A stretch of DNA of 64,000 nt, from the NCBI GenBank assembly GCA_022821805.1, contig JAJECX010000042.1, positions 1-64,000 of the forward strand, given 5' to 3'. The DNA is from Anaerolineae bacterium. GTDB taxonomy: Bacteria > Chloroflexota > Anaerolineae > Aggregatilineales > Phototrophicaceae. Position 1 is the first letter of the stretch. The number at the start of each line of letters is the position of its first letter. Below are positions 23,514 to 56,079 of the stretch, in pieces. A program made the position numbers and the translations under genes. Below the pieces are notes generated by a model. That model was not told the origin of the DNA and did not search any database. It saw only the letters and a list, made by a program, of their open reading frames with translations.

Positions 23514-24299
23514 CTAGCTGACCCGTCCGCGGATCAGAATATGGCGATTGAGGAAGGTTGCCTTTTCGCCCCCCCAGTCTTGCGGATCCATCCACTCGCG
23601 CGTGATCTGTGGCGCGTCTCGCAGGATCTGTATCAGTTCGGCGATGGTGGCGTCGTCATTGCCTTGCCGCTGCGCCCAGGGGATGAAATCGTGCCGCTTG
23701 AGATAATGCTCGCTGTGTTCGATAGCGAATCCGGCGCGCCTAAACATCGCTATCCACTCAGCCTCGGCAAAGGCGCGATGATGACTGGGATCGCGCAGAC
23801 GCTCGAAGCAATCCACGATTCGCGCCGCCCCGCGGTCATCCGGCAAGACATGATCCTGCAGCATAAATACAGCGCCCGCTTTCAAAACGCGCGCGCACTC
23901 CATGACGAAACGCGGCGCATCGGGAAAATGATGCGGCGCTATGCGACAGGTCACCAGGTCAAAACGGTCGTCTTCAAAAGGCAGGTTTTCCGCGTCCGCC
24001 TGTTCAAAGCTTACGTTGTCGACGCCCCGCTCTTCAACGATGAATCGCCTCGCCTTCTCCAGCATGCGCGGCGTGAGGTCGCTGGCGATGACGTGGGCGA
24101 CATGGGGCGCGAACTTCAGCGCGGTGTGTCCGCCGCCGGTAGCGATGTCGAGCGCCTGCCACTGCGGCTGCGGCTGCACGATCGCCAGCAGCCGATCCAG
24201 GTCGCTGCCGCGCGCATGGGTCTCGCTAGTGATGTAGCCTTCGGCGAAGCGAGAATAGCGCGCCTGCGACAAGGCTTTCGAGTCCTGCGATTCGGACAT
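23514..24299 (-). CDS. UbiE/Methyltransf_11-type SAM methyltransferase
   Basis: The SAM-binding core is WQALDIATGGGHTALKFAPHVAHVIASDLTPRML. It is followed by ADAENLPFEDDRFDLVTCRIAPHHF and MECARVLKAGAVFMLQDHVLPDD. About 261 residues from the ATG at 24299; the extra 35 codons in the ORF track are not family-like. The substrate cannot be assigned. It lies 12 bases before the TTG-started glycosyltransferase gene's stop-proximal side, on the same strand. Confidence 0.85.
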   Translation of the reverse strand: MSESQDSKALSQARYSRFAEGYITSETHARGSDLDRLLAIVQPQPQWQALDIATGGGHTALKFAPHVAHVIASDLTPRMLEKARRFIVEERGVDNVSFEQADAENLPFEDDRFDLVTCRIAPHHFPDAPRFVMECARVLKAGAVFMLQDHVLPDDRGAARIVDCFERLRDPSHHRAFAEAEWIAMFRRAGFAIEHSEHYLKRHDFIPWAQRQGNDDATIAELIQILRDAPQITREWMDPQDWGGEKATFLNRHILIRGRVS

Positions 24300-24570
24300 C
24301 TCATCTCCTATTTTGGCGGCTTGATTCGTGCCGGAGCTTCTGATAGCGCCCGGCAATCCAGTCGGCTGCGATTTCGGGGCAAGCCTACAATTGCCTCGCC
24401 CCACACTGGCTTGCGTTCTATCTTACAAGACATTGACCGATACAACAGACTTCGCTCGCGTTGGCGCTTAATGCTGCGCTGGCCATCCGCCTTTTCCACC
24501 GCCGCAGCGATAAGCTGCTACAATATCCGCTACCTGTTCGGCTTGTTTAACAATTCATCAAGAGACGAAT

Positions 24571-30824: not shown

Positions 30825-30913
30825 ATCGAAAGTGGACCCGTCAGCAAGCGCTTGACGAGTCGGTCAGAAAGCGATATCGCCATTAGCCAGGTATATTGGC
30901 AGCCGAACGGGGA

Positions 30914-32041
30914 ATGATGCGCATCGCCCACCTCATCAAAGTGACTCGCATAAGCGGCGCCGAGCGGCACCTCCTCTTCCTTGTCGAAGGCTTGCGGAAG
31001 CGCGGAATTGACGCACATCTGATCATTCTTGTTGAGCGCGAACGACCGATGGACGAGATGGCGCGAGCCGCCGAGAAGCGCGATATTCCCTTGACGCGAT
31101 TGACCATCCACCGCGACTATGACTTGCCGCTGCTGTTGCGGCTGCGGCGAGCGCTGCGCCAAATCAAGCCCGATATCGTCCACACGCATTTGATTCATGC
31201 CGATGTCTTTGGATACGCGGCAGCGAAGTTGGCTCAGGTCTCCGCAGTTGTCAGCAGCCGACATCTCGATGATATCTTTCGCTATCGCTCGCGCTGGCGC
31301 CGAATTAATCGTTGGCTCTGGCGCCGGATCGACGCCGGCATCGCGATTTCGGCCGCGATGAAACGGTTCGCGCTGGAGGTCGAGGACGCGCCCGCGGATA
31401 AAGTCAGCATCGTACTTTATGGCATGGAATACCGTTGGCGCAGCGACGACGACATTGCTTCATCCCGCGATCAACTCAGAACTGAACTGAACCTGCCACC
31501 GGATGCGCAGGCGCTGGGAATGGCCAGCCGCCTGGTGGAGCAGAAAGGCATATCCTATGCGCTGGAGGCGCTGCGCCGCATCCGTTCTGATTTTCCGCGC
31601 GCGCATCTAGTCATTGCGGGCGATGGCGAGAAAGCCGGCGAGCTGCGGCGGCTGGCGAGCATGCTCGGCATCGCCGATCGCGTCCGCTGGCTGGGCTGGC
31701 GCGAAGACGCGGCCGATTTGATGGCCGCCTTTGACATCTTCCTCTTGCCCAGCCTGCACGAGGGCTTCGGCTTGGCGCTGCTGGAAGCGATGTCGCGCCG
31801 CGTGCCGATCATCGCCAGCCGCGTCGGCGCCATACCGGAAGTCGTCGTCGACGGCGAAACGGGCATCCTGGTCGAAGCGCGCAATGTCGATCAGCTTGCC
31901 GAGGCGATGGCGCGCCTGCTAAAGGATCGGGCGCTGCGCAAATATATGGGGCTGCTGGGCGCCGCGCGCGTGGAGGATCACTTCAGCGTCGACAAGATGG
32001 TGGACCGCACGCTTGTCATTTATCAAAAGATTCTGGAGTAA
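30914..32041 (+). CDS. Glycosyltransferase (GT4-like)
   Basis: A GT-B fold enzyme: acceptor half with RIAHLIKVTRISGAERHLLFLVEGL and donor half with LGMASRLVEQKGISYALEAL, LVIAGDGEKAGELRRLA and PSLHEGFGLALLEAMSRRVPIIASRVGAIPEVV (the EX7E signature). The ORF opens at a TTG at 30896; the paired ATGs at 30914/30917 match the family N-terminus better, though the GGGGA ahead of them is very close. It lies just before the TIR-FHA gene. Confidence 0.88.
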   Translation: MMRIAHLIKVTRISGAERHLLFLVEGLRKRGIDAHLIILVERERPMDEMARAAEKRDIPLTRLTIHRDYDLPLLLRLRRALRQIKPDIVHTHLIHADVFGYAAAKLAQVSAVVSSRHLDDIFRYRSRWRRINRWLWRRIDAGIAISAAMKRFALEVEDAPADKVSIVLYGMEYRWRSDDDIASSRDQLRTELNLPPDAQALGMASRLVEQKGISYALEALRRIRSDFPRAHLVIAGDGEKAGELRRLASMLGIADRVRWLGWREDAADLMAAFDIFLLPSLHEGFGLALLEAMSRRVPIIASRVGAIPEVVVDGETGILVEARNVDQLAEAMARLLKDRALRKYMGLLGAARVEDHFSVDKMVDRTLVIYQKILE

Positions 32042-32053
32042 GCGGAACCCTTG

Positions 32054-32824
32054 ATGAAGAATGTATACCTGTCTTATGCGCCGGAAGATGGCGAGCGGGC
32101 GGAAGAATTGCGGCGGATTTTGCTGGCGCAGGGACATCGTCCCTGGATCGACCCTCAGCCCGTCGACGGCGAACGCTGGCGTTATGAGATGGAAGCGGCA
32201 ATCGGCGCGGCCAGCGCGCTGATTGTTGTCGTGACAGCAAGTTCTGCGGCATCGCCATTCGTCACTTTTGAGTGGGCTTTGGCTTTGGGCGCTGGCTTGC
32301 CCGTCTTCGCTATCATTTGCGAGGAAGCGCCCGAGCATCCGCGCCTGGCAATGGTCCATCGCTATGACCCTCGGGCTTTCAGCGATGAGAATCATTTTTG
32401 GGATCACTTCGTGAGTGATTTCAACCGGCGGATGGAAGGCGCCGCTGCCGGGAAGCGACCGACCGCAGATTCAGGCGCAGGCGCGCTCGAAATCGACAAA
32501 AGCGTCATGCCGACCGAACCCGGCTATTGGATCGTTATGCGGCGCGGACCGCTGAAAAACCAGGTGATTCGGCTCGAGCAGGCGGTGGTCAACATCGGGC
32601 GCGACCTGTCAAACGATATCTCCATACGCGACGGACAGGTAAGCCGCTACCATCTGCGCCTTATGCTGCAGGGTCAAGACTATCACCTGCAAGACTTGGG
32701 CAGCACAAACGGCACGCGCGTCAACGGCGCGCAGGTATCAGGGCGGACGCGCCTGAACGACGGCGATATCATCGCGCTGGGCGATGCGATCCTGCTGAGC
32801 TACGATTTGGTCTATTTGGAATAG
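32054..32824 (+). CDS. TIR-FHA domain protein
   Basis: Residues 1-130 are a bacterial TIR (TIR_2-like) domain: NVYLSYAPEDGERAEELRRIL, GHRPWIDPQPVDGERWRYEM, ALIVVVTASSAASPFVTFEWALALG. A glutamate stands at the place expected for TIR NADases (TFEWA). Residues 165-255 are an FHA domain, which binds phosphothreonine: NIGRDLSNDISIRDGQVSRYHLRL and LQDLGSTNGTRVNGAQV. There is no membrane segment. TIR domains either scaffold signalling or cleave NAD; FHA suggests control by a Ser/Thr kinase, but none is in the window. It follows the glycosyltransferase gene by 12 bases. Confidence 0.88.
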   Translation: MKNVYLSYAPEDGERAEELRRILLAQGHRPWIDPQPVDGERWRYEMEAAIGAASALIVVVTASSAASPFVTFEWALALGAGLPVFAIICEEAPEHPRLAMVHRYDPRAFSDENHFWDHFVSDFNRRMEGAAAGKRPTADSGAGALEIDKSVMPTEPGYWIVMRRGPLKNQVIRLEQAVVNIGRDLSNDISIRDGQVSRYHLRLMLQGQDYHLQDLGSTNGTRVNGAQVSGRTRLNDGDIIALGDAILLSYDLVYLE

Positions 32825-32861: not shown

Positions 32862-35800
32862 TCAAGGCACTACAAAGATGACATCGGACGCTTGCACGAT
32901 GTTGCCGCCTTTTACCAGCGCCAGCCGCAGCACATAATTGCCGGGCAAGAGCGCGTCGGCATGCAGCGTTTCCAGTTGACCCTGCACCACCGGGTTGTGA
33001 TGGGGATTACCTAGCGGCGTCCAATCGGCAAACTGTCCGCCGCGAATATAGAAGTGGTAATTCTCGGCTTGACCGGGATCAAAATGCGCGGCGCCGATGA
33101 TGGGAATCGCGCTGCTGACCGATTGGCCCGGCGCCGGCTGCTGAATTTGCAGCGCCGCGCCGACGCTGCCGATGGCTTGCATGCCGTAAACACCGGGCCA
33201 GCAATCCACCGTCGGCAGGTACGCCAAGCCCTTTTCGCGCGCGTAGCGCTCGGCTTCAACGGCATCATTATGCGAGGTAGTAGGTCCGTTAATGAAGAAG
33301 AGATTCTGCGCGCCAGCGGCGATCGCTTCATGCGCGTCTTGTACCGGCACGCGACAGAATTTGGGTGGGACCGGGGGCTTTTCGCCTGGTCCAAACTGGA
33401 ATTGAAGCCCGGCTGCCACATCTGGCGGCAGGGGATAAGCCAGCGTCTGATACACGCCGGGAGATACCTCGCGCAGGACCGAGCCCTGCACCGGGACCGC
33501 GGTCGGATAGCGCTGCGCCACGGGCGGGTAGATGAGGCCGCCACCCCCATCGGGGACGCCAGCGGGACCGTCTAGCGTCCACTCGTTGATCCTATCTCGG
33601 CAATTGGTCGATAGCTCAGTCAGGCGGCGCACATCGCAGATCTGCCGCAATGTCATGCCATTGGGCGGAATCGGCTGATCGTTTAGCAGCTGCCCATCAG
33701 TCGCAAAGGCGGCCAGCAGCTGCCTATTGCCATAGATGCCGCCGAGCACGGTATTCCAGATCGGCGCCGCGCCGGTCAAGCCGGAAGAATCAATCATCGG
33801 GTCGCCGTCGTTATTGCCTACCCAAACGCCGACAGCGACATTGCGCGTATATCCAATTGTCCAGTTGTCCTTGACATCATCGGTCGTTCCCGTTTTGACC
33901 GCGGCGGTGATATTGTCGGTGCGCAGCGAGCTATAGGCGCCCATGGCCGGGCTGCGCGCGCGGTTATCGCCAAGCATATCGGTGATGACGAAGGCGACCC
34001 GCGGATCGAGAACTCGAGCCCCCGCCGCGCCCTGCAAAACCGTCCGCTCGTTGATCTGCCCCTCGGGGCAGCCGTCTTCGTATTGATACAAAATCTGATC
34101 ATCGCTGTCGACCACGCAAAGGATGGATGTCACCGGCACATAACTGCCTTGATTGGCGAAAACAGCAAAAGCGTTGGTCAATTCGATCAGCGTGACTTCG
34201 CCGCCGCCGAGCGTCAGCGACAAGCCGTAATTCGAGGCCTCCTCATCCAGCGTTGTGATGCCGAAGCGCCGCAGCAAATTCAACAGATACTCGACGCCGA
34301 CCAGCCGCAAGGTCTGCACCGCCGGAATGTTATAGCTGTTGGCGAGCGCCGCGCGCATTGTCATCGGTCCGTGGAAGGCATTATCGAAATTGCGGGGGCT
34401 ATAGACCGGCAAACCGGGCAGCGCGATTTGCGTGCGTGTGTCCCAGAGCACGTCGGTCGTGGACATGCCGCGTTCCATCGCCGCTGAATAGGTAAAAGGC
34501 TTCATGGTGCTGCCGGGCTGGCGGAAAGCGGTGGTGACGTTGACACTGCCATCGATCGCCTCATTGCTGTAATCAATGCTGCCAACCATCGCGATAATCT
34601 CGCCGCTGGCCGGCTTGGCGACGACAACCGCCGCATTGCTGACGTTCTTCGCCTGCAGCTGCGCCACTTGATTGGCGGCCGCGCGCTGCGCCAGCCGATT
34701 CACATCCTGGTCGAGCGTCGTATAGACGCGCAATCCGCCGCCGGTGATGTCTTCCGGGCTGTAGCCGAGGCGGCGCATGAGCCGTTCGAGCTCGCCCTGG
34801 GCATAGACAGTGAAATGCGGCGCCGCCAGCGAGACGTTGGCTGGCGCGAAAGACAATCCCTCGCTCAGCGCCAGCCTTACCTGCTCTTGAGAAATAAAGC
34901 CTTCTTCCGCCATCTCCCCGAGCACTTGCCGCCAGCGTTCATCAACCGCCGCTTGCACCGCCGGATCTGGATTCAGCGGGTCCAGCCAGGCGGGCGCCTG
35001 TGGCAAGCCAGCCAGCATCGCCGCTTCGCCGACGCTGAGTTGGTCGACATCTTTGCCGAAGAATGTTTGCGACGCCGTTTGCGCACCGTAAGCCAGATTG
35101 CCGTAATAAATCTCGTTGAAATACATTTCGAGGATTTCATTTTTGCTCTTGGATTGCGTCAGCACTATCGCGAGCAGGATTTCTTCGGCTTTGCGCGCGA
35201 TACTGCGCTGAGCTCGTTTCTCGAAGTCGAAGAAGATATTGCGCACCAACTGCTGGGTGATGGTGCTGCCGCCGGGCGTGCTGCTGCGGTCGGCGGCGCC
35301 CAGATAGTTGAGCGCGGCCAGCGCCGTATGCCCCAGGTCTATGCCGATGTTTGTACGGAAGGAATCGTCCTCGATAGCAATCGTCGCCAATTTCAAGGCG
35401 TCGGGGATCTGCTCGTAGCTGACGCGTGTACGCCGCCCCTCGCCAAAAGCCTCATAAAGTTCGTTTCCGTAGCGATCGTAAATGAAAGTGCTTTCAAAGC
35501 CGCGATAGTTGTCGACTTCGGCGACGCGCGCGGTCCATTCGGCTTCGACTTGAGGCAGAATCACCATCGCCGCGCCGGCCGTCAGCAAGCTTAAGCCGCC
35601 GCAGAAGCTCAACATTATGCCCGCCAGCAACCATAGGCAGCCGACGGGCAAACCCAGGAATCGGCGTTTGCGCCGACGCCCGCGCGCAAGCTGCATCAAG
35701 TTATTCTTCCGCGAGCGAGGCATTTGCGCCGTCGGGGGCGACGGACTGAAGGCGCCGGCGAGTTGCGGGATGGTGGGCGCGTCATCCTTGGGCAGCCTTG

Positions 35801-36098
35801 CTGGCGCGTCTCCTGGAGCAAGGGCGATCTCTTGCGGCGCATGCTTGCCCGCATCGGGCAGCGGCGACGCTATTTGCCCATAGGCGGGCAGCGTAACCAG
35901 ATCGCTGCGCGCATCTCGCGGGGTCGCTTCATCCAACTCCGAAACGTGCGGCAGCGAAAAGGGCATATCCGCCCCCTGCTCCACCTTGACCGCCTCCGTG
36001 GTCATCGTATCGTCGTCCGCCGGCGGGAGCGTCGGGGAGCGCGCCGCTGAGTCGCTTTGCTCGCCGTCGCTGTCTCGCCGGTTACCGTCTTGCTCCAT
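32862..36098 (-). CDS. Class A penicillin-binding protein (glycosyltransferase/transpeptidase)
   Basis: A bifunctional peptidoglycan synthase of 1078 residues. A cytoplasmic tail of about 145 charged/Pro-rich residues precedes the membrane segment (FLGLPVGCLWLLAGIMLSF). The GT51 domain has AIEDDSFRTNIGIDL, STITQQLVRN and NEIYYGNLAYGAQ; in the first motif the usual His (EDxxFxxHxG) is Asn. The transpeptidase has SxxK (GSTMKPF), SxN (NSYNIP) and KTGT. After about residue 800 there is a Pro-rich linker and an Ig-like end domain (LQIQQPAPGQSVSSAIPIIGAAHF), longer than E. coli PBP1a. Confidence 0.95.
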   Translation of the reverse strand: MEQDGNRRDSDGEQSDSAARSPTLPPADDDTMTTEAVKVEQGADMPFSLPHVSELDEATPRDARSDLVTLPAYGQIASPLPDAGKHAPQEIALAPGDAPARLPKDDAPTIPQLAGAFSPSPPTAQMPRSRKNNLMQLARGRRRKRRFLGLPVGCLWLLAGIMLSFCGGLSLLTAGAAMVILPQVEAEWTARVAEVDNYRGFESTFIYDRYGNELYEAFGEGRRTRVSYEQIPDALKLATIAIEDDSFRTNIGIDLGHTALAALNYLGAADRSSTPGGSTITQQLVRNIFFDFEKRAQRSIARKAEEILLAIVLTQSKSKNEILEMYFNEIYYGNLAYGAQTASQTFFGKDVDQLSVGEAAMLAGLPQAPAWLDPLNPDPAVQAAVDERWRQVLGEMAEEGFISQEQVRLALSEGLSFAPANVSLAAPHFTVYAQGELERLMRRLGYSPEDITGGGLRVYTTLDQDVNRLAQRAAANQVAQLQAKNVSNAAVVVAKPASGEIIAMVGSIDYSNEAIDGSVNVTTAFRQPGSTMKPFTYSAAMERGMSTTDVLWDTRTQIALPGLPVYSPRNFDNAFHGPMTMRAALANSYNIPAVQTLRLVGVEYLLNLLRRFGITTLDEEASNYGLSLTLGGGEVTLIELTNAFAVFANQGSYVPVTSILCVVDSDDQILYQYEDGCPEGQINERTVLQGAAGARVLDPRVAFVITDMLGDNRARSPAMGAYSSLRTDNITAAVKTGTTDDVKDNWTIGYTRNVAVGVWVGNNDGDPMIDSSGLTGAAPIWNTVLGGIYGNRQLLAAFATDGQLLNDQPIPPNGMTLRQICDVRRLTELSTNCRDRINEWTLDGPAGVPDGGGGLIYPPVAQRYPTAVPVQGSVLREVSPGVYQTLAYPLPPDVAAGLQFQFGPGEKPPVPPKFCRVPVQDAHEAIAAGAQNLFFINGPTTSHNDAVEAERYAREKGLAYLPTVDCWPGVYGMQAIGSVGAALQIQQPAPGQSVSSAIPIIGAAHFDPGQAENYHFYIRGGQFADWTPLGNPHHNPVVQGQLETLHADALLPGNYVLRLALVKGGNIVQASDVIFVVP

Positions 36099-53791: not shown

Positions 53792-56079
53792 TTTGTACCT
53801 TCACACTCGATCAAGCCTCGGGCTTCCACGATAAACCATTGAGCCGCATCAACTTGCCTGCCATTGCGATATTGAATCCAAGACGTAATTTGCTTATCGC
53901 CAGGGTTACAGTTTCGCACCAATCTGGAAGCGGCTATGTGGCCGTTGCGCCTGGCTTCATCTGGGGTGCTGCCACCTGCTTCTACCCAAGCACCTTCATT
54001 AGTATATCTATACTTAATCGGCTCAGGTGTATTAGTTGGTATCGGGGGCCGATGCGTGTTCGTCGGTTTCGGCGTTTTGGTTTTTGTTGGTTTGGGTTTT
54101 GGCTTTTGAGTCGGCTTCTTCGTCGGTGTGAAGGTTGGCGTATCTGTCGGAGTATTCGTGAATGTTGGCGTGAACGAAGGCGTACTTGTCGCGGTTGGGG
54201 TTGGAGTGAAAGTCGGCGTATCCGTCGGGGTATTCGTGGGCGTAAATGTAGGCGTATTCGTAGGCGTGAATGTTGGCGTATTGGTCGGCGTGTTGGTCGG
54301 TGTATTCGTTGGCGTGGCAGTCGGTGTATTGGTAGGCGTATCTGTGGGTGTGAAAGTCGGGGTGTGCGTCGGCGTTGCCGTTGGCGTATCCGTCGGCAGC
54401 ACCGTCAACGGCAGCAAGGCGCTCCATTCGCCCGATTCTTCACAGGTTTCGCCATCCCCCACCGCCCGGACCTGGACTTCGTAAGGCGCGCCAACTTGCA
54501 GTTCAGCAAATTGGTAAGCGCGCTGCGCAGCGGAAAGCGTCGTCGACAGCCAGTCGCCGCCCGCCATTCGCCATCGCAGCTGATAGCCAATGGCGCCCTC
54601 AACCGCATCCCATCCGACGACAAAATCGGATAGTGGTTGAAGATTCGCCGGCCTCGGCAGTATACATAGCGGAATCGCAGTATCCGTTGCAGTTGGCGGT
54701 GTGGTCGATGTTGCCGTAGAAGTCGGCGTTGCGGTATGGGTTGCCGTTTCTGTCGGCGTGTTCGTCGCCGTTGAGGTCGCCGTTTCGGTTGCCGTTGGCG
54801 TTTCAGTATGCGTCGCTTCCTCCGTTGGCGTCGGCGTATTTGTCGGAATTGGCGCGTGGGTAGAAGTAGCGACCGGTTCTGCTTCTAGCTGCAAGAAGCC
54901 AGTCCACTCTCCCCGTTTTACATAGATCTCTCCATCGCCAAGCGCCCGCACCTTGACCATGACTGTCACGTCTGCTGCTATTCCCACAAGCGTATATTCG
55001 AGCTGACTTGCCGCAACCGAGACCGTATCGCGTGAGCCGTCCGGCAACTCCCAGCGCACACGGTAGCTTGCCGCTCCTTCCACCGCGTCCCAAGCGATAG
55101 TTCTCGGCCCAATCTGTCTCAGGTTCTCCGGCGCTGGCAGATTGATAGGCTCTGATGGCAAAGTGACCGTCGCTGTATGGGTAGCGGTGTTCGTCGACGT
55201 GTGCGTAGCCGTCGCGGTTGCAGTATTGGTCGTGGTGGCTGTTGGCTTGTTTGTTGCGGTAGAAGTTGGGGTGTTCGTGGCTGTATACGTAGCTGTCGAA
55301 GTTGCAGTAACAGTAGCCGCAGCTGTGGGCGGCAGCGTATTCGTGGCGGTTGGCTCAGGTGTCACAGTTGCTGTTGGCATTGGCGTTGGCGAGGCAGCTG
55401 GCGGCTGCGCCAGTTGGACGAACGAACTCCATCGACTCTTGCTTTCGTAACGTTGTCCATCGCCCAATGCTTGCACGGATACTCGGTAGGTCGCACCTGC
55501 TATCAAGCTGGAAAAGGTAAATTGAGTTTGTGGCGCGTCCACGGTCACTTCGCGATTCTTGCCAGCCCCAGACAATAGTAATTTGTATGCGATAGCGCCT
55601 GAAACAGCCTCCCAAGCGACGGAGTCAGTTGAAATTGGCCGAAGGATTGGCGTTCGCAAGCCGCGAAGAATCACGCGAGTTGCGGTCGCCGTTGGCGTAG
55701 CGGTGGGTGTATTCGTCGGTGTTGCAGTGGGAAAAGGGCGAGTTATTACTGTGAAATTAGTCCAGCGGCTGTCCTGATATTCCGCGCTGTCGCCTGAAAC
55801 TGCTTGTACTTTCACATAATAGAGCTCGCCGTAATGAAACCCGCTCATATCGAATCTGTTAGGAGTCACCTCTTCTAGGATGTAACGCAATCTCGCGGCT
55901 GCTCTCACCCACTCGACGCGATAGCCGCTTGCGCCTGCGACTGCGTTCCAGACGACCGCATCGTTTTCGACGCGGATATTCTGTGGCCGCGGGAGCTGCC
56001 GCTGAGCTTGGGCAGACGGTGCAAAAAAGATAGACATCATCGCCACCAGCAGCGCGCATTGCAAAATCTTGTGACTCAT
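53788..56079 (-). CDS. Secreted protein with four FnIII-like modules on Thr/Pro stalks
   Basis: A 763-residue protein beginning with a signal peptide ([24 protein letters not shown]). Four related beta-sandwich modules follow, each opening LPxPxNL..(W)(D/E)AV.GA..Y, for example [19 protein letters not shown] and [20 protein letters not shown]. They are joined by Thr/Pro/Ala stalks of growing length. After the longest stalk comes a basic TKTKTPKPT segment and a novel 76-residue C-terminal domain with two cysteines. No LPxTG or anchor is visible. The ATG at 56079 has GGGGC upstream; the ORF track adds 51 codons. It is probably an adhesive or display protein; function unknown. Confidence 0.85.
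54019..54396 (-). repeat. Longest TPT-coding tandem repeat
   Basis: Within the stalk-protein gene, six-base to twelve-base units coding (N/D/F)TPT repeat for about 380 bases. Shorter repeats of the same kind lie at about 54670-54880, 55145-55410 and 55665-55740. Such arrays can change length by slippage. Confidence 0.85.

What the first reader, a model, noticed from the sequence alone, without database searches (positions are those of the whole stretch)
32054..32824. TIR-FHA protein between envelope genes
The TIR domain keeps a glutamate at the place used by NADases, and FHA offers phosphothreonine sensing. Genes around it make glycans and peptidoglycan, so it may be a signalling adaptor or a defence/NAD-depleting effector.
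Basis: partly seen in the sequence, partly recalled or inferred. Interest (0 to 1): 0.55.

Follow-up and report, generated by a model that had tools for sequence, protein, structure and literature searches.

The report
TIR-FHA protein with eroding NADase site
The gene really encodes a TIR domain fused to a phosphothreonine-reading FHA domain; it is a family-restricted Chloroflexota protein whose NAD-cleaving site is intact in some relatives and lost in others while the domain stays under selection, so it is more likely a phosphorylation-guided adaptor than a dedicated NAD-destroying weapon.

Summary
Confirmed: window 32054-32824 (+) encodes a 256-aa protein, TIR_2 at residues 4-107 and FHA at 180-243. 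Foldseek places the TIR model with SARM1, TIR-1, RPP1 and SPARTA TIRs. Glu73 lies in the NADase glutamate column. The family is a vertically inherited, single-copy gene of one Anaerolineae family: 28 of 34 genus genomes including its own, 13 of 64 others.

Two results shift the interpretation. (1) Catalytic residues are not held: the Trp position of WxxxE is among the most variable TIR columns (rank 98 of 107), and one clade lost both the beta-A Ser and the Glu (S7A+E73A). Yet its TIR dN/dS (0.13-0.15) matches catalytic-intact pairs. FHA phosphothreonine residues are invariant except His200. (2) The envelope neighbourhood is local: other genera have different neighbours, and six same-genus genomes lack the gene here with neighbours kept. 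No defence system or kinase adjoins it in the genus.

Best reading: a phospho-guided TIR adaptor derived from an NADase-type TIR, with residual activity possible in members such as this one. Interesting but not exceptional.

The parts
32054..32824 (+). TIR-FHA gene, 256 aa, ATG to TAG
   Evidence: conserved full length in relatives
32063..32374 (+). TIR_2 domain, residues 4-107
   Evidence: Pfam E 5.5e-17; TIR model with Foldseek matches to SARM1 and other TIRs
32072..32074 (+). Ser7, beta-A serine corresponding by motif to AbTir S140 (required for NADase activity there)
   Evidence: Ser in 25 of 32, Ala in 7; AbTir/TcpC mutants in PMC11374754
32150..32152 (+). Asp33, invariant, corresponding by motif to AbTir D167
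   Evidence: PMC11374754
32258..32260 (+). Phe69, at the Trp position of the NADase WxxxE motif; highly variable column
   Evidence: aligned with the Trp of 7uxr; entropy rank 98 of 107
32270..32272 (+). Glu73, at the catalytic glutamate column
   Evidence: Glu in 28 of 32, Asp in 1, Ala in 3
32591..32782 (+). FHA domain, residues 180-243, with phosphothreonine-site residues R183, S197, R198, H200, N219, G220
   Evidence: Pfam E 2.9e-19; all invariant but H200
30896..32041 (+). Upstream group-1 glycosyltransferase; its stop is 12 nt before the TIR-FHA ATG, so co-transcription is plausible; spacing kept in most of the genus but not in one clade
32862..36098 (-). Convergent class A penicillin-binding protein downstream (transglycosylase plus transpeptidase); a neighbour, not shown to be functionally tied

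Best explanation
A soluble two-domain signalling adaptor. The FHA domain docks on a phosphothreonine made by one of the cell's Hanks-type Ser/Thr kinases, and this docking recruits or clusters the TIR domain. The TIR acts mainly by TIR-TIR or TIR-partner assembly. It descends from an NADase-type TIR, so members that keep Ser7, Asp33 and Glu73, like this one, may still hydrolyse NAD+ weakly. Shown: the domains, the fold class, invariant FHA phosphothreonine residues, loss of catalytic residues under continued purifying selection. Inferred: the kinase partner, the assembly, and what is signalled.
For: S7A+E73A clade (L048, L051, L055; support 98/89) keeps TIR dN/dS at 0.126-0.148, like catalytic-intact pairs at 0.128-0.209. 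WxxxE Trp column nearly free. FHA site R183, S197, R198, N219, G220 invariant. TLR-like FW motif in the last helix in 31 of 32, aligned with MyD88 over the full domain. Three Ser/Thr kinases and eight FHA domains in the genome. No defence partners.
Against: The window member itself keeps Ser7, Asp33 and Glu73, and 28 of 32 keep Glu73; structure neighbours are mostly NADases. No partner protein is identified and no kinase is adjacent in the genus. NG86 dN/dS on few pairs is a coarse measure. Catalytic loss is shown for one clade only.
Confidence: 0.5

Rival explanations
1. A phospho-gated NADase: FHA binding to a phosphorylated partner clusters the TIR, which then hydrolyses NAD+ to ADP-ribose (cyclic products less likely without the Trp). 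The clade that lost Ser and Glu would be a secondary pseudoenzyme.
For: Glu73, Ser7 and Asp33 present here; top Foldseek matches are SARM1, TIR-1, RPP1, SPARTA; TcpC works without its WxxxE Trp (PMC11374754).
Against: Trp column unconstrained; S7A in 7 and E73A/D in 4 of 32; no change in TIR constraint when the catalytic pair is lost.
Confidence: 0.33
2. An anti-phage defence effector that depletes NAD+ on infection.
For: Many bacterial TIRs are defence effectors (established knowledge); partial weak PADLOC hits to TIR parts of SAVED-TIR and Argonaute-associated models.
Against: No defence partner among ten flanking genes other than a partial mad2 hit three or more genes away; single-copy, syntenic, vertically inherited in the genus; no full-length match on plasmids; loss of catalytic residues in a clade.
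Confidence: 0.09
3. A cell-envelope regulator like FhaA/FhaB, working with the neighbouring glycosyltransferase and penicillin-binding protein.
For: The FHA is closest to NCBIfam FhaB (E 2.4e-18, below cut-off); glycosyltransferase stop 12 nt upstream and PBP convergent downstream.
Against: Other genera carry it beside CysRS, a glutamine amidotransferase, a trypsin-like protease and others. Six same-genus genomes keep the glycosyltransferase and PBP without it. An FhaA-type gene lies elsewhere, next to a short FHA gene and a RodA/FtsW-like gene.
Confidence: 0.08

Closest known systems
TIR NADases (SARM1, C. elegans TIR-1, RPP1, SPARTA TIR-APAZ, AbTir)
   Same: TIR fold (TM-scores about 0.65-0.78 by query length), Glu at the catalytic column, Ser and Asp by motif
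   Different: Phe in place of the WxxxE Trp; catalytic Ser/Glu lost in one clade; fused to FHA
FhaB/FipA, GarA and OdhI FHA proteins
   Same: FHA sequence and fold, intact phosphothreonine-site residues
   Different: Below the family cut-offs; no conserved Thr motif before the FHA for GarA-type autoinhibition; carries a TIR instead of a short tail or membrane anchor
Chloroflexota TIR proteins fused to HEAT repeats, and TIR-TIR-FHA / TIR-FHA-FHA proteins (L128, L129, L131, L068)
   Same: Same 'VTYEWA.ALG..PV..HPRL' TIR subclass
   Different: Different C-terminal modules; aromatic at the Trp position more consistently
MyD88 (non-enzymatic TIR adaptor)
   Same: Full-length TIR profile match including the FW motif of the last helix
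   Different: Remote similarity only; bacterial; FHA instead of a death domain

Membership tests
TIR domain (Pfam TIR_2) | Profile score above the curated cut-off | tested here: met
   62.8 bits against 28; all 32 relatives match
FHA domain (Pfam FHA) | Profile score above the curated cut-off | tested here: met
   69.7 bits against 20.7
FHA domain (Pfam FHA) | Phosphothreonine-site residues (Arg, Ser, Arg/His, Asn-Gly) | tested here: met
   R183, S197, R198, N219, G220 invariant; H200 Gln in one
TIR NADase | Glu at the catalytic column in this protein | tested here: met
   E73
TIR NADase | Trp of the WxxxE motif | tested here: not met
   Phe69; column highly variable. In TcpC the Trp is dispensable
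TIR NADase | Catalytic Ser/Glu kept across the ortholog family | tested here: not met
   S7A in 7, E73A in 3, E73D in 1 of 32
TIR NADase | NAD+ cleavage | not testable with these tools
   needs a biochemical assay
Known TIR defence systems (Thoeris, SPARTA, TIR-SAVED) | Partner genes or full-length model match | tested here: not met
   Only partial weak PADLOC hits over the TIR; no partners among ten flanking genes; ThsB_TIR below cut-off
FhaB/FipA (NCBIfam NF049868) | Score above the curated cut-off | tested here: not met
   66.7 bits against 125

The most novel reading that the evidence does not exclude
A bacterial TIR that has shed its NADase activity but is kept as a scaffold, tied to Ser/Thr kinase signalling through FHA: a bacterial functional counterpart of non-enzymatic animal TIR adaptors, with the enzyme-to-scaffold transition visible within one genus.
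Probability: 0.25. Interest if true: 0.6.

Novelty: new variant of a known kind. Interest (0 to 1): 0.36.

Why it matters
Many bacterial TIRs that have been studied consume NAD+ as weapons or signal makers. A chromosomal, vertically inherited TIR fused to a phosphothreonine reader, with clade-specific loss of the catalytic pair under unchanged purifying selection, gives a natural experiment on whether prokaryotic TIRs have non-enzymatic roles, and would link TIRs to Hanks-kinase signalling.

Tried and rejected
Envelope-operon function: rejected as general, because neighbours differ between genera and six same-genus genomes lack the gene at the locus. Mobile or plasmid element: no full-length plasmid match. 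GarA/OdhI-style autoinhibition: no conserved Thr in the linker (Thr154 in 13 of 32). Kinase linkage: none in the flanks held for the genus; kinases lie roughly 4-8 kb away in two relatives of one other genus, judged inconclusive. A regex kinase scan found only 1 of 3 control kinases and was replaced by phmmer. The whole-protein Foldseek was swamped by FHA hits, so the TIR was modelled alone. G350 C56 TIR genes proved to be TIR plus repeats (HEAT-like by resemblance to L131), not TIR-FHA. Literature: no paper with 'TIR-FHA' in the open library. Coverage limits: in the class and phylum scans at most about six candidates per genome were scored and long lists were truncated, so distant TIR-FHA proteins may be missed. 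Gene calls in flanks came from a home-made ORF caller and may miss small genes.

Full report
What is there. Pfam finds TIR_2 (residues 4-107) and FHA (180-243) far above their cut-offs, in all 32 aligned relatives. AlphaFold gives a confident TIR (pLDDT 86 alone) and an FHA joined by a low-confidence linker (residues 132-145). Foldseek matches the FHA to ArnA, DgcB and GarA FHA domains and the TIR to SARM1, TIR-1, RPP1, SPARTA and AbTir TIRs.

Distribution. The window lies in a 4.4 Mb genome; relatives carry Chloroflexi/Anaerolineae record titles. That they are sponge symbionts is inferred from isolate names only. Full-length relatives with the same architecture occur in 28 of 34 genomes of the genus counting its own, and in 13 of 64 other genomes of the family, single-copy. 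A scan of 400 genomes drawn across the phylum found no full-length match outside the family at E 1e-26, with a capped number of candidates per genome. TIR-TIR-FHA and TIR-FHA-FHA proteins exist in nearby lineages.

Neighbourhood. Within the genus the order M28 peptidase, glycosyltransferase, TIR-FHA, PBP, glycosyltransferase-2 is kept, with a hexapeptide acetyltransferase inserted in many relatives and another gene inserted between glycosyltransferase and TIR-FHA in one clade. In other genera the neighbours differ. Six genomes of the genus lack TIR-FHA at this site: in four the glycosyltransferase and PBP genes are directly adjacent, in two one or two other genes lie between them. The gene is therefore an independent, dispensable unit; the envelope context reflects vertical inheritance.

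Catalytic site. The family profile aligns E73 with the Glu of a bacterial TIR (7uxr) and F69 with its WxxxE Trp. In AbTir, S140, D167, W204 and E208 are all required; in TcpC the equivalents of S140, D167 and E208 are required but the Trp is not (PMC11374754). By motif these are S7, D33, F69 and E73 here. Across 32 relatives D33 is invariant, E73 is Glu in 28, S7 is Ser in 25, and column 69 is nearly free. Aromatic residues at 69 are commoner outside the genus (15 of 17) than inside (13 of 25; Fisher p 0.02). Part of the outside set was read by eye and the sequences are not independent, so this only hints at relaxation inside the genus. Two other TIRs of the same genome keep WxxxE (L122, L123). 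L048, L051 and L055 form a clade (98/89) with both S7A and E73A. Pairwise dN/dS of their TIR (0.126, 0.141, 0.148) equals that of catalytic-intact pairs in the genus (0.128-0.209), so the TIR is maintained without its catalytic pair. Three separate MAGs with TIR dS 0.37-0.83 make a sequencing error unlikely.

FHA. R183, S197, R198, N219 and G220 are invariant and H200 differs in one. The genome holds three Ser/Thr kinases and eight FHA domains, including an FhaA-type protein, so phosphothreonine signals plausibly exist. None of the kinases is near this gene.

Mechanism. FHA docking to a kinase-made phosphothreonine, with TIR clustering, is the simplest reading (inference). Whether the window member also cleaves NAD+ is open, since it keeps Ser, Asp and Glu. 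An abortive-infection weapon is less likely: no defence partners, no sign of plasmid carriage, stable single-copy synteny in the genus.

Novelty. Both domains are well known; the fusion and the erosion of its catalytic pair under selection were not found in the literature searched, which covers only open-licence papers. I rate it a new variant of a known kind.

Noticed in passing
L128:399-1640 (-), L129:804-2048 (-), L068:9731-10903 (+): TIR-TIR-FHA proteins (two near-identical architectures in one genome of the same order) and a TIR-FHA-FHA protein: related fusions of the same TIR subclass.
   Followed up: partly
L131:5707-10291 (+): In genome G437 a TIR-FHA gene is directly followed by a TIR-HEAT gene, with two FHA genes shortly upstream: a small TIR/FHA cluster.
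   Followed up: partly
G000:C38:80854-85662 (-), L116:2855-7663: A 1602-aa Ser/Thr kinase - nSTAND1 NTPase - WD40 protein on the window's own contig, a conflict-system-like architecture.
   Followed up: no
L047:8743-9459 (-) and equivalents: A hexapeptide-repeat acyltransferase gene sits between TIR-FHA and the PBP in many relatives but is absent from the window.
   Followed up: partly
window 54032-54427 (-): A called ORF of repeated Tyr/Ala/His-rich text, probably a tandem repeat rather than a gene.
   Followed up: no
window 23514-24404 (-): Matches PADLOC mad2 over 130 residues (E 1e-21); possibly only a shared methyltransferase domain (not checked).
   Followed up: no
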